IMG/VR virus record: IMGVR_UViG_3300007511_001569
Span: 1-30,239 of that record
DNA from: a virus
Length of the DNA: 30,239 bases
Strand: one strand, 5' to 3'
Both the position numbers and the translations under genes were made by a program. Of this stretch, positions 1 through 20,320 are shown piece by piece (positions within the stretch are counted from its first letter, which is position 1; each line of letters starts with the position of its first letter). The notes beneath the pieces were generated by a model that saw nothing but the letters and a program-made list of their open reading frames with translations, had not been told where the DNA came from and did no database searches.

Positions 1-3000
1 GTCACTGCCCCAGTTCTTCAGGGCTGCGTCCACCACTGTATCTTGCAGGCGCTGGTATTGCATACGTGCCATCCAGTCGGTCTGCATGTCCAGCGGCGTC
101 TGGTTCACCCCGCGCAGGACGGGGCGGAACGCCACTGGCTTCTTCGACTTCCGGTTGCGCGCTTCCATCTGCGACACCGAGACGAGGTCGCCCTTCAGCA
201 GGGTCGGGTCGCCCGCGGGGTCCCGCACCACACCGAGGTTGGTGATGGCACGGATGACCGCCTCGGCGTTCCGCCGCTGGACTCCCGAGTCCTTGTACGC
301 GGTGTGCACCTCATCCGTGAGGTAGTTTCTCACGGTGTTGATGTTGGTCAAAGGCAGAAGCTCGTGCGGGTTGATGGGTCCCGCCGACAGTCTGTCGCCG
401 CGCTTCACGGCCAGGCCCTTGCGCAGGTGGAGGCCGGAGTGGACCAGGTGCTCGGGCACGTAGTGCCGCTTGTCCTCGACCCACACGTTGAGCCCGCCGA
501 CGTCCCGGTCCTTCTCGATCTTGGAGATGCGTCCGCCCCTGCCAGCCAGGGTCGCTGAGTCGGGCAGGGTGGACGGCATCTGCAACAGGTTCTCGACGCG
601 GGTGAACGAGTCGGTGACCTTCCCCTTGGTGCTCGCCACGCCTCCGTGGTGGAACGCCTTCATGGAGAGCTGGGTCGCCGGCTCGCCCAGCGCCTGGGCT
701 GCGATGACGCCGATGTTGGTGCCCGGCTCAGGCAGGCCACCACCAGGCAGCGTCCCGTAGTCCCTGGCGTAGATGCCCTGCGCCGCGGCACTGCGTAGTG
801 GGCTGCGCACCGAGACCTTCTTCGTGCCCGCGTTGCGGATGCGCGTGATGACCTCGGGGGTGAGCTCCGTGTTGCGCGGCAGGGTCTCCCCCGTCCGCAG
901 CTTGGCGGGCTTCGACAGGAACCGGCCGATGATCTCCCGGCTCTCGGTGTCCAGGAAGATCCCGTCCTCGGCGTCGTCCGGGGCGTCGCCCGGGATGACG
1001 AGCATGTTCATGGCCGAGTTGACGATGTCCTTGGTGAGCGCGCCAGGCTTGGCGGTCTCCTTGGTCTTCTGGATCATCGTCTTGCGGGCGCCCTGCATCG
1101 TGGTGAAGTAGCTCGCCGTGTCCAGGCCCTCGGCGTAGCTCTTCGTGATGGGGATGGGGATGGGCCTGTCGGCCGCGTCCTTGATGAGCATCGGGGCCAC
1201 GACGATCTGCCGCAGCTGGTCCCAGTCTCCACGGGCGCCGGAGGACACGAGCTCGAGCGCGTTGTTCTTCTCCCTGGCCAGCTTCGGCTTGAGGATGCGG
1301 GTCAGCTCGTTGGTCGCCTTCTGGTACGCCTCGGCGGCCAGCCGCTCCCTCTTCTCCTCGGAGATGTCGCGCCGCTTGTGGATGGCGGCCACCTCCTTGT
1401 GCGCCGCGTTGACGATGCGGTCGCGGATGTTCCGCTGCGGGGTGAAGTCTCGGAGGCTGACGGAGAAGCCGGACTGGTAGGCGTAGTTGTTCCCCAGGTC
1501 CTTCAGCTGGTTGACCGCATCCCCGAAGTCGTTGGGGTGCTTCTCGGCCAGGGAGGTCAGGAGCTTCCGGGCCTCCCCCTTGTCCAGCAGGTAGCTGGGG
1601 GTGTGCAGGAGCTTCGTGTTCCCCCGCTCCCCCTTCGGCAGCACCCGGTCGATGAGCAGCCGGCCGAGGGTCGTCTCCTTGCCCTTGACCGTGATGACAT
1701 CGGTCATGCCCAGGCCGAGCTCGGCGGCCTCCTTGGCGGCCTCCTTGGTCGACTTGAACTCGTGGCCGGTGCGCTTGCCCCACTTCGTCAGCCGGTACAG
1801 CCCGAGCTGTGCCTCGTGGCCGGGCTGGTACATCAGCCGGCCCGAGGTGGGGCTGAACAGGTTGCGCGAGGGGAACATCTTGTGCGCCTCGCTGACCGCC
1901 TCGTGGGTGAGGGGGACGTAGGCGGACATGGCGTCGCCGTCGAAGTCGGCGTTGTACCCGCCGGTCACCAGCGGGTGGATGCGGATGGCCTTGCCTTCCA
2001 CCACCTTGGGTTGGAAGGCCATGATGCCGAACTTGTGGAGCACGGGGTCGCGCTTCAGCAGCACGGGCCGCTCATCCAGCACCCGCTCCAGGGTGCGGCG
2101 GGCCAGCTCCGTGTCCTTCTCCACTTCCTTCTGGCCCTCGAGCGGGGTGAACCCCTGCTCGGTGCGCAGCTTCCTCACGATGAAGGGCTTGTAGGTCTCC
2201 TTCGCCAGGGAGTAGGGGATGCCCACCTCATCCAGGCCCATCGCGGGCTCGGGGATGATGATGGACCGCATCGACAGGTCCTGCTTGCGGCTGATGAGGT
2301 TCTTCTGGAAGAAGGAGTCCTTGGGCTGGGGCACCCCCTTCATCGTCTCCATCACGCCGCGGTACTGCTGCTTGTTGATGTTCTTGCCCGTCATCGTCAG
2401 GGCACGGAGGTCGTCGTACAGCTCCGCCTGCAGCTTGCGCTTCTCCCCCTCGGGCAGGCCCGGGTCGAACTCCTTGAGCTGCCGGTTGGAGATGGCGAGG
2501 TACTTGTACAGCCCGTTGATGTCGCGGGTGTTGAGGTCGCCCCCGTCCATCACGGAGACCGGCCGCATCGACGGCGGGAGGACGGGCACCACCGACATGA
2601 GGTAGGCGTCGCTCGGCGTCATCTCGTTGGCCTGCAGAGCCTCGAGGTAGCGGGACTCCTTCCTCATCTTGGCCAGGGCTGCCGGGGCGTCGGTCTTCTC
2701 CATCTTCCGGCGGAGCTGCCGCAGCCGCTTGTCGACGTCGATGTCCTTGAGCTTCTCCCGGATGGCCTCGGGCCCGGACTTGCCGTCGAGCTCGTCCTTG
2801 CCCGCCATGATGGCCTGGTACTTCTTGTTGGTCAGCCCCGTCAGCGTGAGGATGGCGCGCTCGAACACCGGGTTGGGCATCGACTCGGCCAGCTCGATGT
2901 GGCTCCACTTCGTGCCGTCGGGGCCGCCGGTGATGCGGGGGTCGAACAGGCCACCTCGCTCGGGCTTCATGTCCTTGCCCTGGAACATCAGCCCCGCGTC

Positions 3001-6000
3001 TGGCAGTGCCCCGTTGGACATCTGGACGACCTGGGCATCGGTCAAGGGGGACAGGTTGATCACGCTGCCCCGCTTCGTGGGGTTGATCCCCATCACGTTC
3101 ATGTACCCCTGGAACTTGTCGTAGGCGAAGGAGGTCGTCGGCGGGGGGAGGGGCTCGCCCGACTGCAGCGCGTCCCACAGCTCGTCGTTGCGCTGGGTCT
3201 TGTAGGTGGCCATCTCCCGGATGTTGGCCTTCGCTCCGTGCGCGAGCATGGCGTACATGCCCAGCGCGTCCATCGCCTGGGCACCGTGGGCACCCCCGCC
3301 CTTGGGCACGCGGTTCACGTCGTAGCCGTAGCCTGTCCCCCCGGACCTGGCCGCAGACTTCTTGGTGACCTGGTGCTTGAGCTTGAGCATGTACTGGTCG
3401 CCCGTCAGGGTGTCGCCCAGCTCGGCGCCAGTCTGAGGGTCGACCAGGGGCTCGGTGTCCTTGACCCCGGCTGCGGCCAGCTCCTTCTTCAGGTCCGAGA
3501 TGTAGTCCTTCTCCCCGCCGGCGAAGTTGTTGACCACGTAGGGCCTGCGCTTCGTGGACAGCTTGCTCGCCGCGGTCTCCAGGACCTGCCCGAGGTTGAT
3601 GCGGCCGGGGATCCCCGCCGGGTTGAGCAGGACGTCGAGCTGTGCGGACCCCTTCTCCGTGGGCCTCGGCATCTCGTGGTCGGGGATGATGGCGGTGATG
3701 ACGCCCTTGTTCCCGTGGCGGCCGACCAGCTTGTCCCCAACGCGGGCGGGCTCCTCGGTGGCGACGTGGACGTCGACGCCCTTGGGGGTCTTCACCACCC
3801 GGATCACCTTGCCGCGGGTGTCGTTGTCCCAGGTGAGCGGCCGCTCGACCAGGTCCTTGACCAGGCTCTTGTGCAGGCGCTCGAGGGCGCGCCGCTCACT
3901 GGTGGGGGCCGGCTTCTTCAGGGAGGCCACCAGGATGTCGCCCTCGGTGACCGTCTCGCCGACCCGGATGATCCCGTCGTCGTCGAGCTTCTTGAGCTTG
4001 GAGTCCGGCGCGCGGTCCGGGGTGGAGTAGGCGCGGAACTTGTCCCGCTTCAGGACCGTGTCCTTGCCGATGGCCAGGTGCTTGCGGTGCATGTGCTGGG
4101 ACGTGAGCTTCTGCGCCCCCGTCTCCGAGACCACGATGCCGTCCTCGAAGTTGTACCCCTTGTACGGGAGGTACGCGACGCGCAGGTTCTTCCCCAGGGC
4201 GAGGGTGCCGCCCTTGGTGAAGTTGGAGTCGGCCACCAGCTGCCCCGACTTGACCTCGTCCCCCACCTTCACGACGGGGTTGGAGTGCAGGACGCTGGAC
4301 GCCTCGTTGAGGGGGAAGTGGTCGTAGAGCTGGACCTCGTGCTTCTTGCGGTCCTTCCCACGGATGACGACGGCGTCGGGCTTGATCTCGATGACCTTGC
4401 CCGCCACCGGAGCGTGGTGCGCGTTGAACCTGCCGAGGGTCTGCTCGAAGGTGCGTCCGCTCTCCGTCTTCACCTGCACCTGGGGCTGCTCGCGGTCGAC
4501 CAGGGGAACGGCCTGCTCCTGCTGGCGCGAGGCCGTCATGGCGCGGACACCCTGGTTGTTCTGGAGGAACGGGATGAGGTTGGAGGACATCCCGAACAGG
4601 GCCTTGGGGGAGCGCAGGACGTAGTCCACGTCCTTGTAGTCGACCGTCTTCAGCTCCCCACCCGGGCCGCTGACCGCCACGCGGCCGGAGGCGTCGGGGG
4701 TTGGCTTCCCACCCTTCCAGGAGAACTGGTCGGGGTAGGCCATCGTGCTGTTGTGCGCCTTGTGGGCGTCGACGTTCTCCATCTTCCCGGTCTTGGTGTT
4801 GTAGGCGCGGATGTAGAGCTTCTTGCCCTTCTTGAGTGCGCCCAGCGGGAGCTGGAGGGTGATGCCCGTCTTGTCTCCCTCGGGAGTCTGGATGGGGTCG
4901 AGGAAGCCCAGGTGGGTCGGGTCGATGAGCCGGACCTCGTCGGTCAGGGTGTGCGTGGTCTTGATCCCACCCTCTCCCATGACCGTGGTCTTGGTCTGGC
5001 CGGACACGAACTCCAGGGGGTTGATCTGCTCGGGCATCTGGGCGAGCTGGCTGGAGGTGAAGAACGAGCGGATGGGCTTGTCGAACAGGTCGGGGGAGAT
5101 GACCTCGCGGACCCGCTTGCCCTTCTTGTCGATGTTGTTGGACAGCTTCGCCTTGATGTCCCGCTGCGCTCGCTGCAGCCGCTCCTCGATGAAGTCCTCG
5201 GTGGAGAGGGCGTCCTTGAAGAACAGGTGCTCGCGGTTGTCTTCGTCCTCCTCACCGCGGGAGATGCGCGCGAGCTTCGCGGCCGAGGCCAGCAGTGCCT
5301 TGGAGCTCACGTGGTCGAACTTCTTGCCCAGGGTGAGCACGGTGCTGTCGGGCCGGAGCTTGGTCTCGGCCAGGGTCTTGGCGATGTGCTCCTCGGCAGC
5401 CTCGATGCTGTCGGCCTGCTTCCCGGTGGACGCCTTGTAGAAGGCGCGCATCGCGACGTCGTGCTTCTCCTTCTTCCCTGCGGTGAGCATCCGACGGCCG
5501 AGCTCGCGCTCGATCTCATCGTCGCCCACCCCCATCGCCTTGAGCACGGGGTACAGGGGGATGTTGGAGTCGCCGTAGTTGATGAGGTAGCGGCGGTTGG
5601 CCGGGTCGAACTTCAGGTCGAAGCCCAGGCCCTTCTCCGCGTTCCACTTCGACACCAGCTGACCCTTGCCTGTGGTGCGGTGGTACACGCCCGACTTCAG
5701 GCGGAACTGGTTGTCGACCTGCCGCTCCTTGCCGTCGACGATGTAGGAGTAGCGGCGGGTGACCTTGGGGAGGTTGGCCACCCGGATGGCCCGGGAGTCC
5801 AGCTCCTTGCCTGACTCCTTGTCGATGAGGCGGACGTCGGCCATGACGGGCACGGTCCAGGACCTGCCCCTCATCTTGGCCTCTTGCTGTGAGCGGATGT
5901 CGTCGATGCTCTTCTTGTCGTCGACCCAGACTCGGTCTACTTCCAGCCTGCGGTCCCGTCCCTCGTAGGGGAAGGTCGACTCGATGGCACCGCTGACACG

Positions 6001-6045
6001 GTCTTTGAGGGCGTCAAACGAGCCCTCTGGGTTCAGCGTTGTCAT
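1..6045 (-). CDS. Fused beta-beta-prime DNA-directed RNA polymerase (partial, C-terminus off the left edge)
   Basis: One uninterrupted minus-strand reading frame of 2015 codons joins both large subunits of a bacterial-type RNA polymerase, beta first. Beta landmarks: VANLPKVTRRYSYIVDGKER near the N-terminus, the rifampicin-region motif FFTSSQL (about 328), GYNFED (E634, D635), VGRHGNKG (about 775) and the C-terminal HGAKANIREMATYKT (about 936-950). Beta-prime starts near residue 1000: ERGGLFDPRITGG (about 1030), VLPPSMRPV with GGDLNTRDINGLY (about 1155-1175), the metal-binding NADFDGDAM (D1367, D1369, D1371), the trigger loop GEPATQLSMKAFHHGG (about 1787-1802) and the beta-prime C-terminal clamp region. 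Every codon row from 2221 to 3240, which spans the junction, was read and has no stop. The beta-prime N-terminal zinc finger is missing. Start: ATG at 6045 with AGGTG upstream. By comparison with beta-prime, probably only some tens of residues are missing. It would transcribe phage genes; whether it acts alone, with a sigma-like factor, or from the virion is not shown. Confidence 0.95.
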   Translation of the reverse strand, partial: MTTLNPEGSFDALKDRVSGAIESTFPYEGRDRRLEVDRVWVDDKKSIDDIRSQQEAKMRGRSWTVPVMADVRLIDKESGKELDSRAIRVANLPKVTRRYSYIVDGKERQVDNQFRLKSGVYHRTTGKGQLVSKWNAEKGLGFDLKFDPANRRYLINYGDSNIPLYPVLKAMGVGDDEIERELGRRMLTAGKKEKHDVAMRAFYKASTGKQADSIEAAEEHIAKTLAETKLRPDSTVLTLGKKFDHVSSKALLASAAKLARISRGEEDEDNREHLFFKDALSTEDFIEERLQRAQRDIKAKLSNNIDKKGKRVREVISPDLFDKPIRSFFTSSQLAQMPEQINPLEFVSGQTKTTVMGEGGIKTTHTLTDEVRLIDPTHLGFLDPIQTPEGDKTGITLQLPLGALKKGKKLYIRAYNTKTGKMENVDAHKAHNSTMAYPDQFSWKGGKPTPDASGRVAVSGPGGELKTVDYKDVDYVLRSPKALFGMSSNLIPFLQNNQGVRAMTASRQQEQAVPLVDREQPQVQVKTESGRTFEQTLGRFNAHHAPVAGKVIEIKPDAVVIRGKDRKKHEVQLYDHFPLNEASSVLHSNPVVKVGDEVKSGQLVADSNFTKGGTLALGKNLRVAYLPYKGYNFEDGIVVSETGAQKLTSQHMHRKHLAIGKDTVLKRDKFRAYSTPDRAPDSKLKKLDDDGIIRVGETVTEGDILVASLKKPAPTSERRALERLHKSLVKDLVERPLTWDNDTRGKVIRVVKTPKGVDVHVATEEPARVGDKLVGRHGNKGVITAIIPDHEMPRPTEKGSAQLDVLLNPAGIPGRINLGQVLETAASKLSTKRRPYVVNNFAGGEKDYISDLKKELAAAGVKDTEPLVDPQTGAELGDTLTGDQYMLKLKHQVTKKSAARSGGTGYGYDVNRVPKGGGAHGAQAMDALGMYAMLAHGAKANIREMATYKTQRNDELWDALQSGEPLPPPTTSFAYDKFQGYMNVMGINPTKRGSVINLSPLTDAQVVQMSNGALPDAGLMFQGKDMKPERGGLFDPRITGGPDGTKWSHIELAESMPNPVFERAILTLTGLTNKKYQAIMAGKDELDGKSGPEAIREKLKDIDVDKRLRQLRRKMEKTDAPAALAKMRKESRYLEALQANEMTPSDAYLMSVVPVLPPSMRPVSVMDGGDLNTRDINGLYKYLAISNRQLKEFDPGLPEGEKRKLQAELYDDLRALTMTGKNINKQQYRGVMETMKGVPQPKDSFFQKNLISRKQDLSMRSIIIPEPAMGLDEVGIPYSLAKETYKPFIVRKLRTEQGFTPLEGQKEVEKDTELARRTLERVLDERPVLLKRDPVLHKFGIMAFQPKVVEGKAIRIHPLVTGGYNADFDGDAMSAYVPLTHEAVSEAHKMFPSRNLFSPTSGRLMYQPGHEAQLGLYRLTKWGKRTGHEFKSTKEAAKEAAELGLGMTDVITVKGKETTLGRLLIDRVLPKGERGNTKLLHTPSYLLDKGEARKLLTSLAEKHPNDFGDAVNQLKDLGNNYAYQSGFSVSLRDFTPQRNIRDRIVNAAHKEVAAIHKRRDISEEKRERLAAEAYQKATNELTRILKPKLAREKNNALELVSSGARGDWDQLRQIVVAPMLIKDAADRPIPIPITKSYAEGLDTASYFTTMQGARKTMIQKTKETAKPGALTKDIVNSAMNMLVIPGDAPDDAEDGIFLDTESREIIGRFLSKPAKLRTGETLPRNTELTPEVITRIRNAGTKKVSVRSPLRSAAAQGIYARDYGTLPGGGLPEPGTNIGVIAAQALGEPATQLSMKAFHHGGVASTKGKVTDSFTRVENLLQMPSTLPDSATLAGRGGRISKIEKDRDVGGLNVWVEDKRHYVPEHLVHSGLHLRKGLAVKRGDRLSAGPINPHELLPLTNINTVRNYLTDEVHTAYKDSGVQRRNAEAVIRAITNLGVVRDPAGDPTLLKGDLVSVSQMEARNRKSKKPVAFRPVLRGVNQTPLDMQTDWMARMQYQRLQDTVVDAALKNWGSD
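385..397 (-). repeat. Copy 1 of the near-palindrome CGACAGACTGTCG
   Basis: This copy lies inside the beta-prime coding part (encoding part of GDRLSAG) and reads on the minus strand. It is identical to the copies at 7356-7368 and 12976-12988. Confidence 0.6.
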
Positions 6046-7350: not shown

Positions 7351-7373
7351 GGGTGCGACAGACTGTCGCGCCC
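7351..7373. terminator. Hairpin between convergent genes, candidate bidirectional terminator
   Basis: Ten-base arms 7351-7360 and 7364-7373 pair with one G-T wobble around a 3-base loop. It lies 8 bp past the zinc-finger gene stop and 16 bp past the portal gene stop on the other strand. There is no T-run on either side, so either it acts in another way or termination is inefficient. Its core is the 13-mer found three times in the window. Confidence 0.5.
7356..7368 (+). repeat. Copy 2 of the near-palindrome CGACAGACTGTCG
   Basis: This copy is intergenic and forms the core of the hairpin at 7351-7373. Identical 13-mers lie at 12976-12988 (plus) and 385-397 (minus orientation). Confidence 0.6.
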
Positions 7374-7388
7374 ATCATTAGCCCTGAA

Positions 7389-9380
7389 CTACACGATGGC
7401 CTTGCCCTCGGGCCGGCGCGGGGGCTTCACCTGGGGGAGCGGCTGCTGCATGGGGTTGAGCGTGTCTCGCTCGCCGCCACCGCCCTCGGACAGCTGCTGC
7501 ACGACCATCTCGTACAGCTGGGGGCTGCCCATCTTCAGCCGCTGGATCGCCTGGCCGTAGGCGGCCGGGTTCTCCCGCTCGAGCTTGCGCAGGTGCGCCG
7601 CGATGCGCTGGGCGACCTTGCGGATGTCCAGCTGCCCGGACTGGCCGGGGTAGCTCGGGGCCTGCGCCATGGCCATGGGGTCCTGCGCGTTCTCCGGGTA
7701 GACCGCCACCTCGTTGGGCACCCCGGGGGCGATCTCCTCACCACGCAGGGACTTCGGCGTGCTGGCCGGCCCCTCGGCGTAGTCGGGTGGCGTGTCCTGC
7801 GGCTGCTGCAGGGACATCTGCAGCTCCTGGGCCTGCATCTGGTAGCGCAGAGCCGCCAGCTGCGACTCGCCCTGGGCTGCTGCCTGAGCCACCATCATCT
7901 TGCGGTTGGCCGTCACCTGCTTGGCCAGCTCGCCCTGCTTGCGCTCCTCCTCGACGTCCAGGTCCTCGCCCAGCTCACGGAGGAGGGTCCGGTCGGAGAG
8001 CTTGCCCATCTGGTTGGCCTGGAAGTAGATCATCAGGCGCTGCAGGTCGTCGGCCATCTTGAAGCGCTCGAAGCGCACGCCGACGCGCGGCCACCCGAGG
8101 TGGTCGCAGATCTGCCCCATGATGAAGTCGCGGACCATGCGCTTCTGGTCCTCGCGGTACCCGATGAACTGGTTCTCCAGGATGCGCATGGAGATGTTGG
8201 TGCCGGAGTACTGCAGGCCACCGAAGATGAACTCCAGGGGGACGTTCATGCCCGCGATGATCTGCTCGCTCCAGACCCGCAGCTCCTGGTGCAGGATGAG
8301 GGCGCGCCCCTGGCCGCCGATCATCTCGTGGCCGATGGGGATGGGCATGATGGGGACGTAGTTGGGGTCCTGCCGCCACCGCGCCACCTCGTCCTCGATC
8401 TGGGTGCGCCACTGGCTGAGGTTCACCATGCTGTAGGGGTCGCTGGTGTTGCTCCCAGCCTGGGGGAAGAGGACGCGGAAGGGCACGATGTGCTCCTGCG
8501 CAATCATCTCCTGCCCCTTGCGGAGGATCTGCAGGTAGAAGATGTCCTTGAGCACCGGCAGCACCAGGGGCATGCCCCAGCCCTGGTCCTTCTGCGCGAT
8601 GATGGGCCGCTTCAGGTGGAAGATGCGGTCGTTCGCGAACACGACGGCCTTGTTCTTCCGCATCGCCTGGATGAAGGTGTCCGAGATCTGCTCCACCACC
8701 CGCTTGCGTCCGACACGGATGCGGTTCTTCAGGCGGCGGGGGATCTTGTAGTAGTAGACGGGGTCGGTCAGGCCCTCGTTGTGCTCGATCTCCACCCGCT
8801 CCGGGTCCCACCGGATGAGCCGGATGCCCTTGGGGCTGCGGAGGGTCTCGTCCCGCACCCGGGCGGCCGCGTGATGCCCGCACTTGGGGCAGCGCAGCAT
8901 GAACTTCAGGTCGGAGAAGCGGTAGTGGGGGCGGAGGTCCTTGGCCGGGGCCTCGTGCCCACACTCACGGCACTCCAGGAACTTGACGAAGGGGAAGTGG
9001 ACGGAGACGAAGGCGTTGCCGAAGTTGTAGTAGTCCAGCCCCACCTCGATCTGGAACTTCCGGATCTGGAGCTGGTCCTCGAACAGGTGGCGGTACCGCT
9101 CCTGGACCTTCTTCTCCTTGGTGTCGTAGACGATGGGGGTGATGGGGTACTCGGCCAGCTTGTAGACCACCGCGTTGATGAGCGGGTTGGTGAAGAAGAA
9201 GTACCGGCACCACCGCAGCATCTGCTTGAGGCGGCTGGGGAAGTAGGTCTGCGCCGCGTCGAAGAACGGGTTGGGGTAGGGCACCCCGATCTTCTCGTAG
9301 CCCATCGTCCCGCCGGGGCGGGAGGACAGCTGCATGGGCTGGGTCCCATAGGCCGTGTTCTGGAAGCCGATTCCCTGCAT
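7389..9380 (-). CDS. Putative portal protein with inserted zinc ribbon (663 aa)
   Basis: Length and layout resemble phage portal proteins, the dodecameric ring through which DNA enters the head. An alpha/beta N-terminal half with YYNFGNAFVSVHF (about 117-129) matches the usual portal YGNAF-type segment. The central part has NMPLEF-like sequence (NVPLEFIFGG) and a long helical stretch, then a Gln-rich coiled C-terminal region (about 470-560). CxxC pairs at 137/140 and 164/167 form a zinc ribbon set into the N-terminal domain. It starts at ATG 9380 with AGAGGTGAGG just upstream, and its first base overlaps the TAA of the gene before it. The assignment rests on remembered family features, so a similarity search is needed for certainty. 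Confidence 0.7.
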   Translation of the reverse strand: MQGIGFQNTAYGTQPMQLSSRPGGTMGYEKIGVPYPNPFFDAAQTYFPSRLKQMLRWCRYFFFTNPLINAVVYKLAEYPITPIVYDTKEKKVQERYRHLFEDQLQIRKFQIEVGLDYYNFGNAFVSVHFPFVKFLECRECGHEAPAKDLRPHYRFSDLKFMLRCPKCGHHAAARVRDETLRSPKGIRLIRWDPERVEIEHNEGLTDPVYYYKIPRRLKNRIRVGRKRVVEQISDTFIQAMRKNKAVVFANDRIFHLKRPIIAQKDQGWGMPLVLPVLKDIFYLQILRKGQEMIAQEHIVPFRVLFPQAGSNTSDPYSMVNLSQWRTQIEDEVARWRQDPNYVPIMPIPIGHEMIGGQGRALILHQELRVWSEQIIAGMNVPLEFIFGGLQYSGTNISMRILENQFIGYREDQKRMVRDFIMGQICDHLGWPRVGVRFERFKMADDLQRLMIYFQANQMGKLSDRTLLRELGEDLDVEEERKQGELAKQVTANRKMMVAQAAAQGESQLAALRYQMQAQELQMSLQQPQDTPPDYAEGPASTPKSLRGEEIAPGVPNEVAVYPENAQDPMAMAQAPSYPGQSGQLDIRKVAQRIAAHLRKLERENPAAYGQAIQRLKMGSPQLYEMVVQQLSEGGGGERDTLNPMQQPLPQVKPPRRPEGKAIV

Positions 9381-12289: not shown

Positions 12290-12321
12290 GCGGGCCTCCT
12301 CAAGGGACGTGTTCAGCCTGC

Positions 12322-12351: not shown

Positions 12352-12368
12352 GCGAAACACCTGCCGAA

Positions 12369-12381
12369 AACCTGGCATAAG
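12369..12381 (+). promoter_or_regulatory. Shared leader motif AACCTGGCATAAG, candidate plus-strand promoter
   Basis: This near copy of the motif at 6095-6106 again lies 30-40 bp ahead of the first plus-strand gene of a divergent pair. TGGCATAAG could act as an extended -10 box; no good -35 box is seen. The intergenic region (12290-12418, 129 bp) contains only this motif, the minus-strand promoter and ribosome sites. Confidence 0.35.
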
Positions 12382-12778: not shown

Positions 12779-13170
12779 TGCCCAGCGTCAGCACCATGTT
12801 CAAGGAGATCCGGAACCGGGCCCACTACGCGAGCCACGCGAGCCTGGCCAAGGCCATGGGCTGCTCCACCGAGTACATCCGACTCATCGAGAACAAGGGG
12901 AGGCTGCCCAGCGACAAGTTCCTCACCCAGTTCCTCCGCACGTGCCGCCCGCCAGCCAGCCTGGCGGCCGAGATACGACAGACTGTCGCGGAGCAGCGGC
13001 TGCAGCGGAAGCACGGCCAGGACCTCAAGGACTACAAGGGCTCGGCTGAGGTGGGGCTCCGCATCTGCCGCGAGATCACCCCCACGCTCACCGACGTCGG
13101 CCTCGAGGGGGAAGACCTCGACCACGTGCTGGGGCGCCTCCGCGACATCCTCACGGCTGAGCTGCGATGA
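12778..13170 (+). CDS. XRE/Cro-like helix-turn-helix DNA-binding protein (130 aa)
   Basis: Residues about 20-60 follow the XRE pattern: HASLAKAMGCSTEYIRLIENKG has the helix-turn-helix spacing with the typical second-helix YIRLIE. The C-terminal part is helical and may mediate oligomer formation. ATG 12778 overlaps the preceding stop by one base, and the stop overlaps the next start (ATGA). The gene probably regulates early phage transcription. The near-palindrome CGACAGACTGTCG lies inside this gene (12976-12988), which makes self-binding a testable idea. It may be a lytic switch rather than a lysogeny repressor, since no integrase is visible. Confidence 0.75.
   Translation: MPSVSTMFKEIRNRAHYASHASLAKAMGCSTEYIRLIENKGRLPSDKFLTQFLRTCRPPASLAAEIRQTVAEQRLQRKHGQDLKDYKGSAEVGLRICREITPTLTDVGLEGEDLDHVLGRLRDILTAELR
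12976..12988 (+). repeat. Copy 3 of the near-palindrome CGACAGACTGTCG
   Basis: This copy lies within the HTH gene coding sequence (encoding part of IRQTVA). The match to the intergenic copy at 7356-7368 extends to 15 bases. Confidence 0.6.
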
Positions 13171-14522
13171 GGTTCCTCTCCCTCCACCCGGACAAGGCAT
13201 ACCGGGGGTCCATGCTGTGGGTCCCCAAGGCCCTCATCCCCCTCGACGCCCTCGAGGCATCGCTCACCTACTGGTTCACCGAGAAGACGAGCTCCGGCGA
13301 GTTCGTGGCCCGGTCCGTGCGCGTCTGGGAGGAGGAGGTGCACCACATCGCACTCCCGAGGGAGTTCCCGCAGGAGCGGGTCCCCTGTGAGGTCATCGAC
13401 CTCGCGCCACCCACAGAACGCATCGGCTACAACTCCACCATCCGCCCCCGGGACGAGATCCAGGCGGCGGCCATGCACGCGATGCGGTCCAGCCACTCTG
13501 GCATCCTCAACCTGGGGTGCGGCCGCGGGAAGACGGTTGTTGGGCTGGACCGCATCGCCTTTGGTCAGGGGCCCGCCCTGGTCATCGTGAACGACAACGG
13601 ACTGCTGGAGCAGTGGCACGAGGAGGTCCTCGACAAGCTGCAGATGAGCGACGACGACATCGGGCACGTGGTGGGGCCCAAGGCCGAGTGGGATCGCCCC
13701 ATCGTCCTGGCCACCGTCCAGACCCTGTGGCGCCGCATCAAGGACAACCTCGTCCCCGAGTGGGTCCGGCGCCGCTTCGCCACGGTGCTCTACGACGAGG
13801 CCCACCACATGGCCGCGATGGAGTTCAACCGCGTGGCCTCCTTCTTCACCGGGGACCGCTACGGCCTGACCGCCACCAGGCGGAGGACCGACGGCAACGA
13901 GCGCTTCTTCGAGATTCACCTCGGGAAGGTGGTCTACACCGACCTCTCGGTGGACGTACCCCCCGTGGTCTACCTGGCGCACACCGGCCTGACCCCCACC
14001 GCGGAGGAGCGCGACGGCTTCTACGTCAACGACAACATCCACGTCGTCAAGGTACGGCAGTGGCAGGCGAAGCACCCCACCCGCAACGGCATGATCGCGG
14101 GCCTCGCGCAAAACGCGCAGGAGGTTGGGCACAAGGTACTCGTCCTCTCCCATCTACGTGACGATCACATCCCCCGCCTGCAGGAGGTCCTGCCGGGCTG
14201 CGGGGTGATCTCGAGCAAGGTGAAGGGCAAGAAGCGGCTGACCAACCTGACCGAGAACGACATCGTCGTGGGCACCATGGGTGCCGCTCGGGAGGGGCTG
14301 GACCGGCCGGACCTGAGCGTGGGTATCTTCACCACCACCTTCGCCAACGAGAACGACTTCCAGCAGGCCACGGGTCGGCTGGCGAGGGCCTACGCGGGGA
14401 AGGTCTCCTCCGAGGCCATCTTCATCGTGGACAACATCCCCAAGTGCTTGGACCACGCCAAGCAGATCGAGCGCTTCGCGAGGAAGCGTGACTACAAGGT
14501 CGAACATTTCAAGCTGGAGTAA
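13167..14522 (+). CDS. SF2 DNA helicase, UvsW/RecG-like (451 aa)
   Basis: This is a superfamily 2 ATPase: Walker A GCGRGKT at 117-123, motif II DEAH at 210-213, motif III TATR at about 235-238 and motif VI QQATGRLAR near residue 400. The size and compact N-terminal domain resemble T4 UvsW, which unwinds R-loops and branched DNA and moves phage replication from origin-dependent to recombination-dependent mode. It starts in an ATGA overlap with the HTH gene. The presence of RecA-like and resolvase genes further along the same strand fits such a role. The specific UvsW assignment is inference; the helicase class is clear. Confidence 0.92.
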   Translation: MRFLSLHPDKAYRGSMLWVPKALIPLDALEASLTYWFTEKTSSGEFVARSVRVWEEEVHHIALPREFPQERVPCEVIDLAPPTERIGYNSTIRPRDEIQAAAMHAMRSSHSGILNLGCGRGKTVVGLDRIAFGQGPALVIVNDNGLLEQWHEEVLDKLQMSDDDIGHVVGPKAEWDRPIVLATVQTLWRRIKDNLVPEWVRRRFATVLYDEAHHMAAMEFNRVASFFTGDRYGLTATRRRTDGNERFFEIHLGKVVYTDLSVDVPPVVYLAHTGLTPTAEERDGFYVNDNIHVVKVRQWQAKHPTRNGMIAGLAQNAQEVGHKVLVLSHLRDDHIPRLQEVLPGCGVISSKVKGKKRLTNLTENDIVVGTMGAAREGLDRPDLSVGIFTTTFANENDFQQATGRLARAYAGKVSSEAIFIVDNIPKCLDHAKQIERFARKRDYKVEHFKLE

Positions 14523-14524
14523 CC

Positions 14525-14917
14525 GTGAGCAAGATCATCGTCAACCCGGACGTGAAGGACGCACCCGAGCCTCCCTTCCCGGCCGAGAACCTCGTCATCG
14601 TCTGCGCCTCGCCCTCCTACGGGTACATCGGGGTGGCAGACTTCCAGTCCGGCCAGCTCATGCGGCTGGAGCACGCTCTCGCCCTCGTGCCCGTGCAGGT
14701 GCGCAGCCAGCTCGCAACGCCGGGCGGGGCCCCCACCCAGGACACGGCCCTCATGCCCATCATCGGTGGGAAGTCCGGCAGCGTGTCGAGCCTGAACCTC
14801 CCCGCCGGGCTCCCCTGGTACCGCGTGGGCAACATGCACCCGAGCGACCGCGACACCATCTACGGCGCCTACATGGACATGACCCAGGATGTCTGGCCCA
14901 ACCCGTCCGACGCGTGA
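14525..14917 (+). CDS. Conserved-looking phage protein of unknown function (130 aa)
   Basis: GTG 14525 follows the helicase stop by two bases, with GGAG at 14516-14519. The protein is Pro-rich with mixed beta strands and has no cysteine pair, membrane span or catalytic motif that I recognise. Its last 29 bases overlap the uracil-DNA glycosylase gene. Codon use matches neighbours, supporting a real gene. The location between a helicase and a repair enzyme suggests DNA metabolism, but this is weak. Confidence 0.65.
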   Translation: MSKIIVNPDVKDAPEPPFPAENLVIVCASPSYGYIGVADFQSGQLMRLEHALALVPVQVRSQLATPGGAPTQDTALMPIIGGKSGSVSSLNLPAGLPWYRVGNMHPSDRDTIYGAYMDMTQDVWPNPSDA

Positions 14918-15716
14918 CGACTGGGCGCGCCTGCGCCTGGACAAGCTGGAGGAGCAGTACGCGGAGTGCGAGCTCTGCCCCGACCTCGTGGACACCGGCT
15001 GGTGGACGCGCAACAACATCGTGTTCGGCGAGGGCATGGCCAACGCCGACGTGCTGTTCGTGGGCATCGCTCCGGGCCAGCGCGAGGACGCGGCCGGGCT
15101 CCCCTTCGTGGGCCCGACGGGGCAGCTGCTCGACGACATGCTCATGCACATGGTCCCGCACGAGGACCTCAAGCCCTTCTACAACACCCGCAAGAACATC
15201 ACCGCGGAGCAGTGGCGGGCCATCCGGCACACCCTCTGCGAGGCTGAGCGCTTCTTCTACACCAACGCCGTGCTCTGCCGGCCGGTGAAGCAGGAGTGGG
15301 ACGACCGCCGGGAGGTGATGCGCCTGCAGAACCGCGACCCGACGCTCCTCGAGTGCAAGAACTGCGCGGACAGGCTGCGCCAGACCATCCGCATCACCGA
15401 CCCCACCATCGTCGTCTCCCTGGGTGCGCCGGCACTGCACTCGCTGCTGGCCATCGACACGAAGTGGAAGGGGAGCCGCCCCAGCGTCCTGGAGATGACC
15501 GGGTCCATCCTGGACCTGCACATCGAGGGCGAGGTCACCACCATCCGGTACCCACTGCTGGTACTGCCTCACCCCGCATACCTGCTCCGCTTCTGGGACA
15601 TCGACGACCAGGGCGGGTGGGTGCAGCGGACGGTCAAGCACCTGAAGCAGGCCCTCCGCATCGTCGATCTGACCCGCAACACCCTGTACCGAACCCCCCT
15701 ACCGAAGAGGAAGTGA
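14889..15716 (+). CDS. Uracil-DNA glycosylase superfamily, family-4-like with Fe-S cluster (275 aa)
   Basis: The catalytic motif reads GIAPGQREDAAGLPFVGPTG (59-78), close to the family-4 GEAPG...EDxxGxPFVGxAG, with Ile replacing the usual Glu. The second motif is PHPAYLLR near residue 225. Four cysteines sit where family 4 holds its 4Fe-4S cluster: C27 and C30 (CELC), C130 in NAVLCRP, and C156 or C159. The enzyme would remove uracil from DNA or recognise phage DNA bases. ATG 14889 lies within the previous gene. The Glu-to-Ile change in motif 1 may alter substrate range, so a non-uracil role cannot be excluded. Confidence 0.88.
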   Translation: MSGPTRPTRDDWARLRLDKLEEQYAECELCPDLVDTGWWTRNNIVFGEGMANADVLFVGIAPGQREDAAGLPFVGPTGQLLDDMLMHMVPHEDLKPFYNTRKNITAEQWRAIRHTLCEAERFFYTNAVLCRPVKQEWDDRREVMRLQNRDPTLLECKNCADRLRQTIRITDPTIVVSLGAPALHSLLAIDTKWKGSRPSVLEMTGSILDLHIEGEVTTIRYPLLVLPHPAYLLRFWDIDDQGGWVQRTVKHLKQALRIVDLTRNTLYRTPLPKRK

Positions 15717-15719
15717 TCT

Positions 15720-16178
15720 GTGGACCCCGAACTGAAGAACCAGCTGTGGGCTGACGCCCAGCGAGCCGTGGACGCCTTCGTCTCGGCCGACGAGCAGTAC
15801 CGCGAGACCCTGGCCGAGATCGAGGCGGAGATGCCCGAGGCCTTCGAGGAGCTGTGGGACCTGCTCGAGAAGCGCAACGTCGCCGTCGTCGACGCGCGGA
15901 AGAAGGTACGCGCCGCCCGCGCGAAGATGGCCCCCTTCCGCACCCAGACCCGGCAGTCGGTCATCTACGACCCCGACGGCTTCATCCAGATGGCGCGCGA
16001 GGCCGGCCAGTACGAGGACCTCTGCGACGCCGGCATCATCAAGACCGCCATCGACGCGTCCAAGCTCAAGGACCACGTCGACGCTGCCACCATGGTCAAG
16101 TACAAGGAGGGCTGCGCCACGGTCGTCGAGACCGGCGCGGCCGTGTATGGCCCCAAGGAGCTGAGCGGTCTGAAGTGA
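15720..16178 (+). CDS. Coiled-coil phage protein of unknown function (152 aa)
   Basis: GTG 15720 has GAGGAAG just upstream. Residues about 5-80 form a long charged helix with heptad character, and the C-terminal half is a compact domain ending in GAAVYGPKELSGLK. The shape recalls phage Gam-type or other helical DNA-end proteins, but I cannot confirm a family. The gene is linked by a GTGA overlap to the next one, in the block of small genes following the glycosylase. Confidence 0.7.
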   Translation: MDPELKNQLWADAQRAVDAFVSADEQYRETLAEIEAEMPEAFEELWDLLEKRNVAVVDARKKVRAARAKMAPFRTQTRQSVIYDPDGFIQMAREAGQYEDLCDAGIIKTAIDASKLKDHVDAATMVKYKEGCATVVETGAAVYGPKELSGLK

Positions 16179-16552
16179 CAGGCCTCACTCGGCGACAGCA
16201 ACCGTCCCTGGCCATCACCAGGGTGGCCAAGCTCAACCCCGACTCCCCCGAGGTCATGGAGACGTACCATGACCCGTCCGAACCCGTACCCCAGGAGGTG
16301 ATGGAAGTGCTCGACAAGTTCGTGTCCCCCAAGACCAAGTCCCCCGCCCGGCTCCGGCTCGGCGGCGACCTCGCAGCCAAGGACTACGGCTCCGGCTTCG
16401 GCGTGTTCGTCAGCCTGGAGTTCGACGTGGACCCCGACATCCAGACCATCGACATGGCCGTCGAGGAGGTGGGCCAGCTGGTCCGCAACTACCAGGCCGA
16501 GCAGATCGTTCACTCCGAGGCGCTCTACCGCGAACTGGCCATCAGGGTCTGA
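16175..16552 (+). CDS. Unknown small protein (125 aa)
   Basis: It starts at GTG 16175 in a GTGA overlap; an ATG at 16256 is the alternative start, giving 98 residues. The second half holds a beta-alpha unit (GSGFGVFVSLEFDVD followed by DMAVEEVGQLVRNY) typical of a small conserved phage fold, while the N-terminus is basic and probably flexible. No motif points to an activity. It is the last gene before the 111-bp gap with the internal promoter. Confidence 0.65.
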   Translation: MTGLTRRQQPSLAITRVAKLNPDSPEVMETYHDPSEPVPQEVMEVLDKFVSPKTKSPARLRLGGDLAAKDYGSGFGVFVSLEFDVDPDIQTIDMAVEEVGQLVRNYQAEQIVHSEALYRELAIRV

Positions 16553-16594
16553 TCCAAGTGCTTGGGATTGCTGGGGAAATCCGCCGCTGATCCA

Positions 16595-16609
16595 CCTTGA
16601 AATTCAAGG
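16595..16609. promoter_or_regulatory. Perfect palindrome CCTTGAAATTCAAGG, candidate operator
   Basis: Seven-base arms flank a single central A. It overlaps the -35 box of the candidate promoter at 16597-16625, the classic place for a repressor site. A second, smaller inverted repeat, CCAAGTGCTTGG, lies at 16554-16565. Confidence 0.5.
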
Positions 16610-16625
16610 CTGAGAGAGGTAGTGT
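16597..16625 (+). promoter_or_regulatory. Candidate sigma70-like promoter for the replication operon
   Basis: TTGAAA (16597-16602) and TAGTGT (16620-16625) are 17 bp apart. The predicted start near 16632 is about 32 bases ahead of the helicase GTG. This is the only gap over 100 bp in the long plus-strand unit. Confidence 0.45.
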
Positions 16626-16663
16626 GGAGGTGTTCCCAGCCTCCCCAACCACTGGAGATATTC

Positions 16664-18052
16664 GTGGCAAGCCCGGAGATCATTCTGCTCACGAAGGTAG
16701 TCGAAGACGGGAACTTCAAGATCCTCAAGGACAACGAGATCGACCAGTCGTTCTTCACGACCATGGAGGGTCGCGCCGTCTACACCTACCTGCACCAGCG
16801 CTTCCACGACCGGGACAACTGGGGGTCCGTACCCTCCATGGACCTCGTCCGACACGTCGTCCGCGACTTCTCCCCGGTGCACACCAGCGACAGCATCGAG
16901 CAGCTCGTCCGCATCGTCACGGAAGAACGCACCCGCGGCGAGCTGCTGCAGCTGAGCGACGAGATCCAGGAGCTGGCCGAGGACGGGTCTGTCGAGAAGG
17001 CCATCCACCGGCTGCTCACGAAGTCTGGGAAGTTCGCCCGAGTCAAGTCGGGCACCCGGGACCTCGACCTCGCTCAGCACGCAGGCGTCATCCGTGAGCG
17101 CTACGACGTCGTCCGAGGGGGCCAGGGGATCATCGGGATCCCCACCCCCTGGCTGCCCCTGACCGAGGAGACCCTGGGCTGGCAGCCTGGTCAGCTCATC
17201 CTCATCTACGGCCGCCCAGGCACGATGAAGACCTGGTCGGCGCTGAACGTCGCCATCCACGCCTACCTCCACGCCAACGCGCGGGTGCTCATCTACTCCC
17301 GCGAGATGACCGAGGAGGAGATCCTCATGCGCTGCGCCGCGCTCATCGCCGAGGTGGACTACGGTCCCTTCCGCAAGGGGCGCCTGCAGCCTGCGATGGA
17401 GGAGCAGGTCTTCGACATCCTCGAGGGCCTGGTGCAGGACGAGGAGATCATCGCGGAGACCACGGGGCTGCACAAGTGCCTCAAGGTCACCACGGCGGCC
17501 GACCTCCCCCGCACCGGCCACACCATCGAGGGCATCCGTGCCAAGGCCGAGGAGTACAAGGCCGACATCGTCATCGCCGACGGCATCTACCGGATGGGCG
17601 ACATCCGTACCGGCAAGCAGTCCATCGAGTGGCAGAGCCTGACCCACGTGGTCCAGGACCTCAAGGAGACGGCCAAGCAGCTCCGGGTCCCCATCATCGG
17701 GGTCACCCAGGCCAACAAGCAGCAGGACCTCGCGTTCGCTGACGCCTTCCTCCAGGAGGCTGACCTCACGCTCCGCATCATCCTCAACGACGAGGACCAC
17801 GAGCTGGTGTGGGTCTGCCCCAAGATCCGAGAGGGTGAGCTCCGAGCGTTCACCACCCACGCCTACCCCGCATCCAACTTCCACCTGAAGGCCGAGCTCG
17901 ACGCCGAGGAAGCCATCCGGCTGAAGAACCTCGACGACCAGGGCAAGGACCCCAAGGGGCAGAAGAAGGGTGGAGGTGGCCGCGGCGGTGGCGACAAGGA
18001 CGCCGACGGACGCAACCCCCCGCGGGTGACCCAGAAGGCCTTCCGCGGATGA
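16664..18052 (+). CDS. Replicative DNA helicase, DnaB-type (462 aa)
   Basis: This is a RecA-fold hexameric helicase that would unwind DNA 5' to 3' at the fork and recruit primase. The N-terminal helical domain (1-125) is followed by the motor: Walker A GRPGTMKT at 183-190, Walker B DIVIADG (301-307), and the sensor-like GVTQANKQQ near 345-353. The Walker A has Met where Gly normally precedes Lys. The tail after about 425 is Gly/Lys-rich and probably disordered. GTG 16664 with GGAGAT before it is preferred over an upstream GTG at 16622 lacking a site. The stop overlaps the primase start (ATGA). Confidence 0.93.
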   Translation: MASPEIILLTKVVEDGNFKILKDNEIDQSFFTTMEGRAVYTYLHQRFHDRDNWGSVPSMDLVRHVVRDFSPVHTSDSIEQLVRIVTEERTRGELLQLSDEIQELAEDGSVEKAIHRLLTKSGKFARVKSGTRDLDLAQHAGVIRERYDVVRGGQGIIGIPTPWLPLTEETLGWQPGQLILIYGRPGTMKTWSALNVAIHAYLHANARVLIYSREMTEEEILMRCAALIAEVDYGPFRKGRLQPAMEEQVFDILEGLVQDEEIIAETTGLHKCLKVTTAADLPRTGHTIEGIRAKAEEYKADIVIADGIYRMGDIRTGKQSIEWQSLTHVVQDLKETAKQLRVPIIGVTQANKQQDLAFADAFLQEADLTLRIILNDEDHELVWVCPKIREGELRAFTTHAYPASNFHLKAELDAEEAIRLKNLDDQGKDPKGQKKGGGGRGGGDKDADGRNPPRVTQKAFRG

Positions 18053-19155
18053 ACGACGTCCACTCCCTCGTCACACAGATTGCGGACAAGTACCTGGGGC
18101 ACTGGAAGCCCTCGGGCGACACCGACATTCTGGTGAACTGCCCCTTCCACCCGGCCGAGTTCGGCAGGCACACCCACACCCTCGCCATCAGCACCGAGCA
18201 TGGCGCCTGGCTGTGCTACTCCTGCGGGGCCTCCGGTGGTCTGCCCTACCTGCTCAAGCAGCTGAAGATCCCGGTGTCCCGCCGGGAGATGCTGCTGGAG
18301 CCGGTGAGGCACGCCGTGGAGAGGCAGAGGGAGCGCGTCCGCACACCCAAGGCGTTCGACTACATCACACCGACTCCCCTCCCCGAGGTCATGCTGGGCA
18401 TCTACCAGCACTGCCCCTCGGAGCTGGTGGCCGCAGGCTTCGACCCAGACGTCATGTACGAGTACGACGTGGGGTACGACCACACCCACCACCGCATCAC
18501 GTGGACCGTGCGGGACAACGAGGGCAACCTCGCGGGCATCCACGGTGGGTCCTCCCACGCCAAGCCCAAGTACCTCCCCTACGAGCTGAAGCACTTCGAC
18601 CCCGAGGTGCGCCGGCGCATCAAGCAGTACGAGTACAAGAAGTCGCTCTACCTGTGGAACATGGACCGCGTGTGGGCCATGGGCTACCACGACCATGGCA
18701 TCCGCGTGAACCTCGTCGAGGGGTTCAAGGCTGGCCTGTGGTGCATCCAGCACGGCTTCCCCAACACCGTCGCCATCATGGGCAGCCGCCTCAGCGCCCG
18801 CCAGGCCGAGTGGCTCAAGCGGCTCGGCGCCGAGGTCGTCCTCTTCCTGGACAACGACAAGGCCGGATGGAGCGGCGCCTGCGCCGCCTACAAGATGCTC
18901 ACCCCTGGGTGCCGCGTTCGCTTCGCGATGTACCCAGAGCCCTACTACCCAGACGGCTACGACCCCGAGGGCGAGCCGTTCGTCTTCCACCAACCTGATG
19001 ACCTCGATGGATACGAGGTCGAGAGGGCTCTGACGGAGCCCGTCCTGAAACCCCAGTGGCTGAAGATACCAGTCCACAAGGACGCATGGAGGATCGTGCA
19101 TGAGCAGTTTTCGTCGAAGCGTAGGGCGCGAGAAGCGCCCCGGTCGCCGCGGTAG
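18049..19155 (+). CDS. DNA primase, DnaG-type zinc-finger plus TOPRIM (368 aa)
   Basis: It makes RNA primers at the phage fork. The N-terminal CHC2-type zinc site uses C31, H34, C56 and C59 (CPFHP ... CYSCG). The TOPRIM core follows: E224 in VEGFKAG, and D268/D270 in FLDNDKAGWSG, which bind the catalytic metals. It is shorter than bacterial DnaG (about 580 aa) and lacks the C-terminal helicase-binding domain, as in many phages. It starts in an ATGA overlap with the helicase gene and its end overlaps the next gene by 56 bp. Confidence 0.93.
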   Translation: MNDVHSLVTQIADKYLGHWKPSGDTDILVNCPFHPAEFGRHTHTLAISTEHGAWLCYSCGASGGLPYLLKQLKIPVSRREMLLEPVRHAVERQRERVRTPKAFDYITPTPLPEVMLGIYQHCPSELVAAGFDPDVMYEYDVGYDHTHHRITWTVRDNEGNLAGIHGGSSHAKPKYLPYELKHFDPEVRRRIKQYEYKKSLYLWNMDRVWAMGYHDHGIRVNLVEGFKAGLWCIQHGFPNTVAIMGSRLSARQAEWLKRLGAEVVLFLDNDKAGWSGACAAYKMLTPGCRVRFAMYPEPYYPDGYDPEGEPFVFHQPDDLDGYEVERALTEPVLKPQWLKIPVHKDAWRIVHEQFSSKRRAREAPRSPR

Positions 19156-20269: not shown

Positions 20270-20280
20270 CCTTCATGCCT

Positions 20281-20306
20281 CCCCTCCCCTCACGCGGCGG
20301 GAGGGG
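20281..20306 (+). other. RNA hairpin ahead of the polymerase gene
   Basis: Arms 20281-20288 (CCCCTCCC) and 20299-20306 (GGGAGGGG) pair perfectly around a 10-base loop, in the 51-bp gap before DNA polymerase. There is no T-run, so it may be a processing or attenuating stem rather than a full terminator. Confidence 0.45.
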
Positions 20307-20320
20307 ACGGCGGAGGCCCT

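What the first reader, a model, noticed from the sequence alone, without database searches (positions are those of the whole stretch)
1..6045. Phage RNA polymerase with beta and beta-prime fused in one polypeptide
Seen: one frame holds all main beta motifs and then all main beta-prime motifs, with no stop at the junction (about residues 955-1000). Known: phage polymerases of this class are usually split (phiKZ-like) or highly diverged single chains (YonO, crAss-like), while natural beta-beta-prime fusions are known in bacteria such as Helicobacter and Wolbachia. Inferred: this is a compact, bacterial-like fused enzyme that could drive a phage transcription programme without host core polymerase.
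Basis: partly seen in the sequence, partly recalled or inferred. Interest (0 to 1): 0.85.

Follow-up and report, generated by a model that had tools for sequence, protein, structure and literature searches.

The report
One-chain bacterial-type phage RNA polymerase
A group of large bacterial viruses makes the two big halves of a bacteria-like RNA polymerase as one continuous protein, and most relatives examined also carry a matching sigma factor (promoter finder), so they may bring a stripped-down transcription machine of their own.

Summary
The fusion is real. On the minus strand (6045 to 1) one frame encodes β then β′; it runs off the record after 2015 aa, and a near-identical contig completes it at 2043 aa. 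It is not an assembly error: in a non-redundant set of best-scoring relatives, all 128 open frames that reach the β/β′ joint cross it. The joint has no linker: β almost to its end, a tight hairpin, then β′ from about residue 19. Two architectures exist: one chain, as here, or β+β′N fused with β′C separate, the match ending at residue 1453-1457 (Salmonella phage Arash, Vibrio phages D69/D181). Both halves fall in one phage clade apart from bacteria. No α or ω model matched in 29 related contigs, but a divergent σ70-type factor did in 25 of 29, in 3 of 3 named fused-RNAP phages, and in 0 of 8 phages with other RNAPs; it was not found in the window or its 74-kb twin. Best reading: a σ-dependent phage core without α or ω, probably of the published mReC clade, whose fusion I found undescribed. 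Activity is untested.

The parts
1..6045 (-). fused RNA polymerase beta-beta-prime frame, 2015 aa, cut by the end of the record (2043 aa in L004)
3073..6045 (-). beta part, residues 1-991
   Evidence: Pfam Rpb2_3 and Rpb2_6; alignment to E. coli RpoB; model 1-438/439 aligned to beta chains
3046..3087 (-). joint: hairpin of strands 987-992 and 995-1000
   Evidence: model; E. coli mapping 990 = beta 1338, 995 = beta-prime 19; VIA ranges meet at window 991-998
1..3063 (-). beta-prime part, residues 995-2015 (end missing)
   Evidence: Pfam Rpb1_1 to Rpb1_5
1933..1953 (-). catalytic NADFDGD, residues 1365-1371
   Evidence: aligned to E. coli D460, D462, D464; AD.DGD in 73 of 74 one-chain relatives
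1675..1689 (-). place (residues 1453-1457) where the other architecture breaks the chain in two; continuous here
7389..9380 (-). portal-like protein, 663 aa, upstream of the polymerase on the same strand
   Evidence: PHROG portal protein E 7.6e-5, weak; 67% identical to the G001 gene in the same place; Arash gp204 beside its RNAP is annotated portal
12352..12381 (+). promoter-like motif GCGAA-N17-GGCATAAG, 37 bases before a candidate first gene of the replication module (lead only, mixed statistics)
13167..22294 (+). replication module: helicase, uracil-DNA glycosylase family, DnaB-like helicase, primase, DNA polymerase

Best explanation
It is the catalytic core of a phage-encoded, bacterial-type RNA polymerase of tailed phages, probably of the published mReC clade, made as one beta-beta-prime chain. 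Covalent joining of the end of beta to the start of beta-prime replaces the assembly that alpha (and omega) give in cells: the two halves fold into the usual arrangement around the two double-psi barrels, and no alpha or omega is needed. A phage sigma70-type factor docks on the retained clamp-helix and flap regions and sends the enzyme to phage promoters. Shown: the continuous frame, its conservation, the linkerless joint, the intact catalytic motif, the phage clade, and the association of one sigma family with this RNAP in relatives. Inferred: that alpha and omega are dispensable, that this sigma is the partner, that the window's own phage has it, and that the complex transcribes phage genes.
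For: Frame and domains. All 128 non-redundant frames that reach the joint cross it. Joint without a linker. Catalytic aspartates kept. Phage clade in both halves and together. Phage genes around it. Alpha: PF01000 0 of 9, PF01193 0 of 29; omega 0 of 29; control genomes 13, 13 and 14 of 14. Sigma family in 25 of 29 contigs (23 of the 27 that did not supply the model), 18 of 19 members match Sigma70_r3 and a PHROG sigma family, 3 of 3 named fused-RNAP phages against 0 of 8 with other RNAP types; Arash gp10 is annotated a sigma factor.
Against: No activity data. The sigma is missing from the window and its 74-kb twin G032, and from G033, G038 and G044. Two of the 25 hits (G036, G043) are short or weak, one (G009) is partial, and the G004 and G041 proteins are identical. 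Contigs are of unknown completeness and a very diverged alpha would escape Pfam. Sigma70_r2 and r4 are matched by few members (3 and 4 of 19). Some phages carry further sigma-like genes, so host or other sigmas could pair with either core. The sigma could also work with the host core.
Confidence: 0.62

Rival explanations
1. It is a virion RNA polymerase, packaged and injected to transcribe early genes (as vRNAPs of phiKZ-like phages), rather than an enzyme made after infection.
For: The frame lies next to a portal-like gene in the window, next to annotated portal and structural genes in Arash, and the Arash sigma lies between structural genes.
Against: No virion proteomics here; gene neighbourhood alone does not show packaging; I found one fused RNAP frame per locus and did not search whole genomes for a second RNAP.
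Confidence: 0.3
2. The chain is a precursor cut after translation into separate beta and beta-prime.
For: A two-protein form exists in relatives, though cut elsewhere, in beta-prime; tailed phages often encode proteases (recalled).
Against: The joint is a two-residue turn inside a confident hairpin with no spare linker, and it is conserved across divergent members.
Confidence: 0.05
3. It is a bacterial rpoBC fusion or host DNA in the assembly.
Against: Both halves lie outside the six bacterial references; phage replication and head genes surround it; the genomes of two of three MAGs with such a contig also have an ordinary bacterial rpoB over the family cut-off.
Confidence: 0.02
4. Sequencing or assembly error hides a stop at the joint.
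For: It is a metagenomic contig, and frames broken elsewhere do occur in the set (L075 at about residue 683, L131 at about 496, L132 near 1087-1120).
Against: All 128 non-redundant frames that reach the joint cross it, and so do the isolates Arash and D69.
Confidence: 0.01

Closest known systems
mReC, multi-subunit RNAP-encoding Caudovirales (Weinheimer & Aylward 2020, PMC7481178; parts 1-3 of 6 of the text read)
   Same: Phage-encoded beta and beta-prime that stay alignable to cellular enzymes, keep NADxDGD, and form a clade apart from cells; found in IMG/VR contigs with tailed-phage genes.
   Different: In its text 'fused' and 'fusion' are used of crAssphage, and 'sigma' and 'split' do not occur. 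I could not compare its sequences directly, and the TerL and capsid families it reports as typical were not met in G001.
Salmonella phage Arash gp206/gp216 and Vibrio phages D69, D181, D148 (records)
   Same: Same clade, same beta to beta-prime joint, same sigma family (not tested for D148).
   Different: beta-prime C is a separate gene; about 30-34% identical; annotated only as 'beta subunit' or hypothetical.
phiKZ-like jumbo phage RNAPs (PMC7598289, PMC7824862, passages)
   Same: Phage beta/beta-prime relatives without alpha or omega.
   Different: Split into four or five polypeptides, very diverged, no recognisable sigma; here fused, bacterial-like, sigma family present.
crAss-like, YonO and P23-45 single-subunit two-barrel RNAPs (PMC10770324, section 12 and passages)
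   Same: Both barrels in one chain.
   Different: Those belong to a second, highly diverged clade; this one matches Pfam cellular RNAP models strongly. That paper also says the cellular clade includes some derivatives with fused barrels, without naming them in the text seen.
Bacterial rpoB-rpoC fusions of Helicobacter and Wolbachia (recalled; search listing only)
   Same: beta then beta-prime in one chain.
   Different: Bacterial enzymes; no such sequence was included in my trees.

Membership tests
mReC | beta/beta-prime in a phage clade distinct from cellular RNAP | tested here: met
   SH-aLRT 98, 99 and 100 against bacteria only; no archaea, eukaryotes or published mReC rows were included
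mReC | both subunits recognisable, NADxDGD present | tested here: met
   Pfam Rpb2 and Rpb1 domains; NADFDGD at 1365-1371. The paper's COG models were not on hand
mReC | tailed-phage hallmark genes on the contig | tested here: met
   window portal-like match (weak) and, in relative G001, major head protein and terminase
mReC | reported as typical, not required: capsid PF07068 and terminase PF03237 | tested here: not met
   G001 only: terminase matches PF05876 and the capsid candidate matches no Pfam family at E 0.01
phiKZ-like RNAP | beta and beta-prime each split into two or more chains | tested here: not met
   one frame
crAss-like or YonO single-subunit RNAP | no recognisable sequence similarity to cellular beta/beta-prime models | tested here: not met
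   Rpb2_6 193 bits, Rpb1_2 107 bits
Bacterial fused RpoBC | branches among bacteria | tested here: not met
   outside six bacterial references; Helicobacter and Wolbachia fusions were not included
sigma70 family (gene in relatives) | sigma70 region 3 match | tested here: met
   18 of 19 members
sigma70 family (gene in relatives) | regions 2 and 4 recognisable | tested here: inconclusive
   at E 0.01, r2 in 3 and r4 in 4 of 19
sigma-dependent RNAP | promoter-specific transcription with the sigma | not testable with these tools
   needs biochemistry

The most novel reading that the evidence does not exclude
A large clade of tailed phages carries a natural minimal bacterial-type transcription machine of two genes: a one-chain beta-beta-prime core that needs no alpha or omega, and a dedicated, co-inherited sigma that reads its own promoters (perhaps GCAAA-N15..17-GGNATAAG). 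Within it, a single switch between one-chain and two-chain forms shows where RNAP tolerates being joined or cut.
Probability: 0.48. Interest if true: 0.8.

Novelty: new variant of a known kind. Interest (0 to 1): 0.63.

Why it matters
Cellular multisubunit RNAPs assemble on alpha-like subunits (PMC7598289, passage). A phage core that keeps recognisably bacterial beta and beta-prime sequence and the sigma-docking regions, but fuses the subunits and apparently drops alpha and omega, would be a close natural model of a minimal sigma-dependent polymerase. It makes the question what alpha and omega are needed for directly testable, offers a possible single-gene bacterial-type RNAP plus sigma as a tool, and adds an architecture character for the debate on the deep mReC branch.

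Tried and rejected
Artefact, bacterial contaminant and phiKZ-like or crAss-like membership were tested and rejected.

Wrong strand: I first scanned plus-strand ORFs 7353-9473, 9507-10487 and 10568-12328 (no hits). Comparison with G001 showed the genes lie on the other strand; they were rescanned.

Promoter search. In the 67% GC relative G001 only ribosome-binding-site-like words stood out clearly. In G006 a bipartite motif appeared: 8 of 67 upstream regions against 0.01 in shuffles and 0 in coding stretches, but it was derived from the same data. G008 had 0 of 96. Looser forms gave G006 14 against 3.4, another 6 against 3.0. In 155 other held loci (L063 dropped because it is G006; some stretches overlap, identical hits counted once) there were 23 hits against 2.5 from a Markov model, 21 of them on the strand opposite to the RNAP. 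Against it: 40 letter-permuted patterns gave mean 7.8, one of them 23; with only the -35 letters permuted, 25 patterns gave mean 14, maximum 28. For it: spacings 15-17 give 9, 7 and 5 hits against 0-4 at the others. I keep it as a lead only.

Direction of the architecture change is not settled: the two-chain class is one side of a branch (SH-aLRT 93), but in the beta tree Arash and D69 sit among one-chain rows and in the beta-prime tree beside them. All trees are quick searches with SH-aLRT only, with letter-composition warnings, and a long-branch warning (GN1 and Carin-5 with bacteria; RHph).

Folds: Foldseek's 50 shown rows are mostly beta-prime chains at rmsd about 13 over more than 500 columns; the VIA rows separate the halves. 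Nothing is concluded from families not listed. The second structure job was not used, so the sigma has no fold check.

Literature: ten searches. 'Salmonella phage Arash' gave no paper; a six-term search for phage, RNA polymerase, rpoB, rpoC, 'fused into' and sigma factor gave none. Passages of a 2026 jumbo phage review (PMC13282480; 'fused' does not occur) and of PMC12619734 were seen. Supplements could not be read, most subscription papers are not held, so a description elsewhere is not excluded.
Full report
WHAT IS THERE. The window is a whole 30,239-base IMG/VR record. Its minus strand from 6045 to 1 holds one open frame of 2015 aa that ends only with the record. Pfam finds beta domains first (Rpb2_3 at 336-399, Rpb2_6 at 579-904) and then beta-prime domains (Rpb1_1 at 1110-1192 to Rpb1_5 at 1640-1941). 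The best PHROG matches are two families of unknown function, one for each half. The near-identical contig L004 holds the complete protein, 2043 aa; it is 99.9% identical to the window over 28.9 kb.

IT IS NOT AN ERROR. A first scan of IMG/VR gave 10 loci. A wider scan gave 297 relatives of which the best 80 were kept, another 301 with the best 80 kept as 78 loci, one with the separate beta-prime C piece 8 loci, and GTDB genomes 3. Of 170 held loci, 132 remain after removing those whose joint-spanning frame shares an identical 120-aa window with one already kept. In 128 a single frame spans residues 950-1040. The other 4 are contig-edge pieces or beta-prime C only (L006, L167, L198, L204; L167 and L204 are one contig). 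So no frame in the set stops at the joint. The kept hits are the best-scoring ones, so the set leans to long unbroken matches; frames broken elsewhere do appear (L075 at about 683, L131 at about 496, L132 near 1087-1120).

TWO ARCHITECTURES. Seventy-four non-redundant loci have one full chain. Forty-one have beta plus beta-prime N in one frame that is not cut by the contig end and whose profile match ends at window residue 1453-1457 (counted, listed). Where the held DNA reaches it, beta-prime C is a separate frame, mostly of about 590-680 aa, one of 1030. Arash (gp206 1525 aa, gp216 606 aa) and the Vibrio phages D69 and D181 are of this kind, D181 with a further break in beta beside a homing endonuclease gene; D148 is known to me from the search row only. 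The cut corresponds to E. coli beta-prime about 551-569, after the catalytic barrel. PMC7598289 reports a split after that domain in phiKZ-like and cyanobacterial beta-prime (passage). Other phages keep separate genes in the order rpoC then rpoB (Yersinia GN1 and YerA41, Cobetia Carin-5; the order for GN1 and Carin-5 is read from YerA41's labels and the alignments).

THE JOINT. Aligned with E. coli, window residue 990 is beta 1338 (of 1342) and window 995 is beta-prime 19. So only the last few residues of beta and the first dozen or so of beta-prime are replaced. An AlphaFold model of residues 560-1460 from 48 family members has mean pLDDT 85.8 and pTM 0.74; at the joint two strands (987-992 and 995-1000) form a hairpin with a two-residue turn. 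Against solved structures, model residues 1-438/439 follow beta chains (8rdj_C Z 24.0, rmsd 3.7, to chain residue 1071; 6f6w_C Z 23.8, rmsd 3.9, to 1137), and residues from 432-434 on follow beta-prime chains from residue 3-30 (9gdo_D Z 24.6, rmsd 2.2 over 402). The two matches meet at window 991-998.

WHAT IS KEPT AND LOST. The three catalytic aspartates align with E. coli D460, D462 and D464. AD.DGD is present in 73 of 74 one-chain proteins; in the exception, L007, an intein-like insert interrupts it. Against E. coli the window lacks beta 227-348 and 933-1036 and beta-prime 68-99 (the N-terminal zinc ribbon; label recalled), 946-1132 and 1344-1407, besides shorter stretches (the last partly because the record ends). 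The stretches that carry the beta-prime clamp helices and the beta flap tip, the sigma docking sites (positions recalled), are not among the missing ones. The second zinc site keeps its cysteines in L011 but not in the window's subclade.

ANCESTRY. In trees of each half, the 34 fused rows plus Arash and D69 stand together apart from bacteria and from GN1/Carin-5 (SH-aLRT 98 for beta, 99 for beta-prime), and the window groups with L003 and L008 (100) in both. The concatenated tree of 76 rows (56 one-chain, 14 two-chain, 6 others) gives 100 for the fused family and puts the two-chain class on one side of one branch (93), one change of architecture in all. The trees are quick searches with warnings (see Tried and rejected).

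PARTNERS. Pfam alpha models: 0 of 9 contigs (PF01000) and 0 of 29 (PF01193); omega: 0 of 29 (PF01192). The same searches rang in 13, 13 and 14 of 14 control genomes. Weak sigma-region hits in G001 (the 202-kb relative, RNAP 67% identical) and G005 proved to be one protein family, 38% identical. A model of these two finds the family in 25 of 29 contigs with the fused RNAP that I chose, mostly the longest; 23 of 27 without the two that made the model. All 21 contigs longer than 140 kb have it; the misses are G032 (74 kb, the window's phage), G033 (49 kb), G038 (139 kb) and G044 (105 kb). The hits in G036 and G043 are short or weak, that in G009 is partial, and the G004 and G041 proteins are identical. 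It is not in the window. Of 19 aligned members, 18 match Pfam Sigma70_r3 and 18 a PHROG sigma family. As a control with the 19-member model, 3 of 3 named fused-RNAP phages have it (Arash E 1.5e-75, with one stop codon in the matched stretch; D69 and D181 3e-65, these two near-identical in size and place), and 0 of 8 phages with other RNAP types do, at E up to 1. The Arash hit is gp10, annotated RNA polymerase sigma factor, in a stretch with structural genes; in D69 the gene is a hypothetical protein. Arash gp196 and D69_0246 and proteins in G002 and G003 are further sigma-like genes, so some of these phages have two.

HOW IT MOST LIKELY WORKS. Shown: fusion, conservation, linkerless joint, intact active site, sigma co-occurrence in relatives. 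Inferred: joining the subunits takes the place of alpha-guided assembly, and the phage sigma directs this core to phage promoters. PMC7598289 notes that the AR9 core is catalytically active without additional subunits (passage), so doing without alpha has precedent in phages. A promoter-like motif stands 37 bases before a candidate first gene of the window's replication module, but its statistics are mixed.

RELATION TO WHAT IS KNOWN. The mReC paper (PMC7481178; parts 1-3 of 6 of the text read) describes the RNAP clade to which this enzyme most probably belongs. Its search text uses 'fused' and 'fusion' of crAssphage, and 'sigma' and 'split' do not occur. Passages of PMC7598289, PMC7824862 and PMC13282480 do not describe it in what I saw. 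PMC10770324 (section 12 and passages) mentions fused-barrel derivatives within the cellular clade without naming them there. The enzyme clade is thus probably known; its single-chain nature, its two architectures and its sigma association are, as far as these searches go, not spelled out. I file it as a new variant of a known kind.

SCORE. Single-chain two-barrel RNAPs and phage beta/beta-prime are both known, which limits surprise. What raises the score is the bacterial-like sequence, the constancy of the joint, and the sigma association, which together make a minimal sigma-dependent RNAP testable. On rechecking I lowered the best-explanation and novel-case odds slightly, because the window's own 74 kb lacks the sigma and some sigma hits are partial or duplicate.

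Noticed in passing
RNAP frames of L007, L011, L025, L084, L087, L089: Inserts of 353-504 aa with intein-like ends sit at catalytic places: after window residue 389, 773, 1371, 1761 and 1799. L089 (Candidatus Eisenbacteria MAG contig) has four, in a 3777-aa frame. The L007 insert has a LAGLIDADG match.
   Followed up: partly
L007 and L011, catalytic motif: The sequence before the insert reads NADFDGN and the insert's last residue by alignment is D, followed by TMAAF; if spliced at the usual ends the third catalytic Asp would read Asn.
   Followed up: no
G006 (L249-L257); window 12352-12381 (+); 23 places in other loci: Bipartite promoter-like motif GC[AG][AG]A-N15..17-GGNATAAG, with mixed statistics.
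   Followed up: partly
window 14889-15716 (+), 24730-25986 (+), 26436-27242 (+): Uracil-DNA glycosylase superfamily protein, UvsX-like recombinase and a Cas4-domain exonuclease-like protein.
   Followed up: no
L013 (Vibrio phage D181), 4462-5410: The beta part is broken at about window residue 496/497 beside an annotated homing endonuclease gene; L131 breaks at the same residue.
   Followed up: no
phages collection: Acinetobacter phage MD-2021a (L104), Staphylococcus phage SA 1306 Kay (L105), Enterococcus phage Efs 1-1-1 (L107): Records labelled phage hold bacterial-type rpoB and rpoC (beside ribosomal protein genes in L104) and group with E. coli in the trees; they look like host DNA.
   Followed up: partly
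Rhizobium phage RHph_TM30 (L091), Vibrio phage Va2 (L095): Other tailed phages with their own beta-prime-like gene, without an annotated beta in the stretch shown.
   Followed up: no
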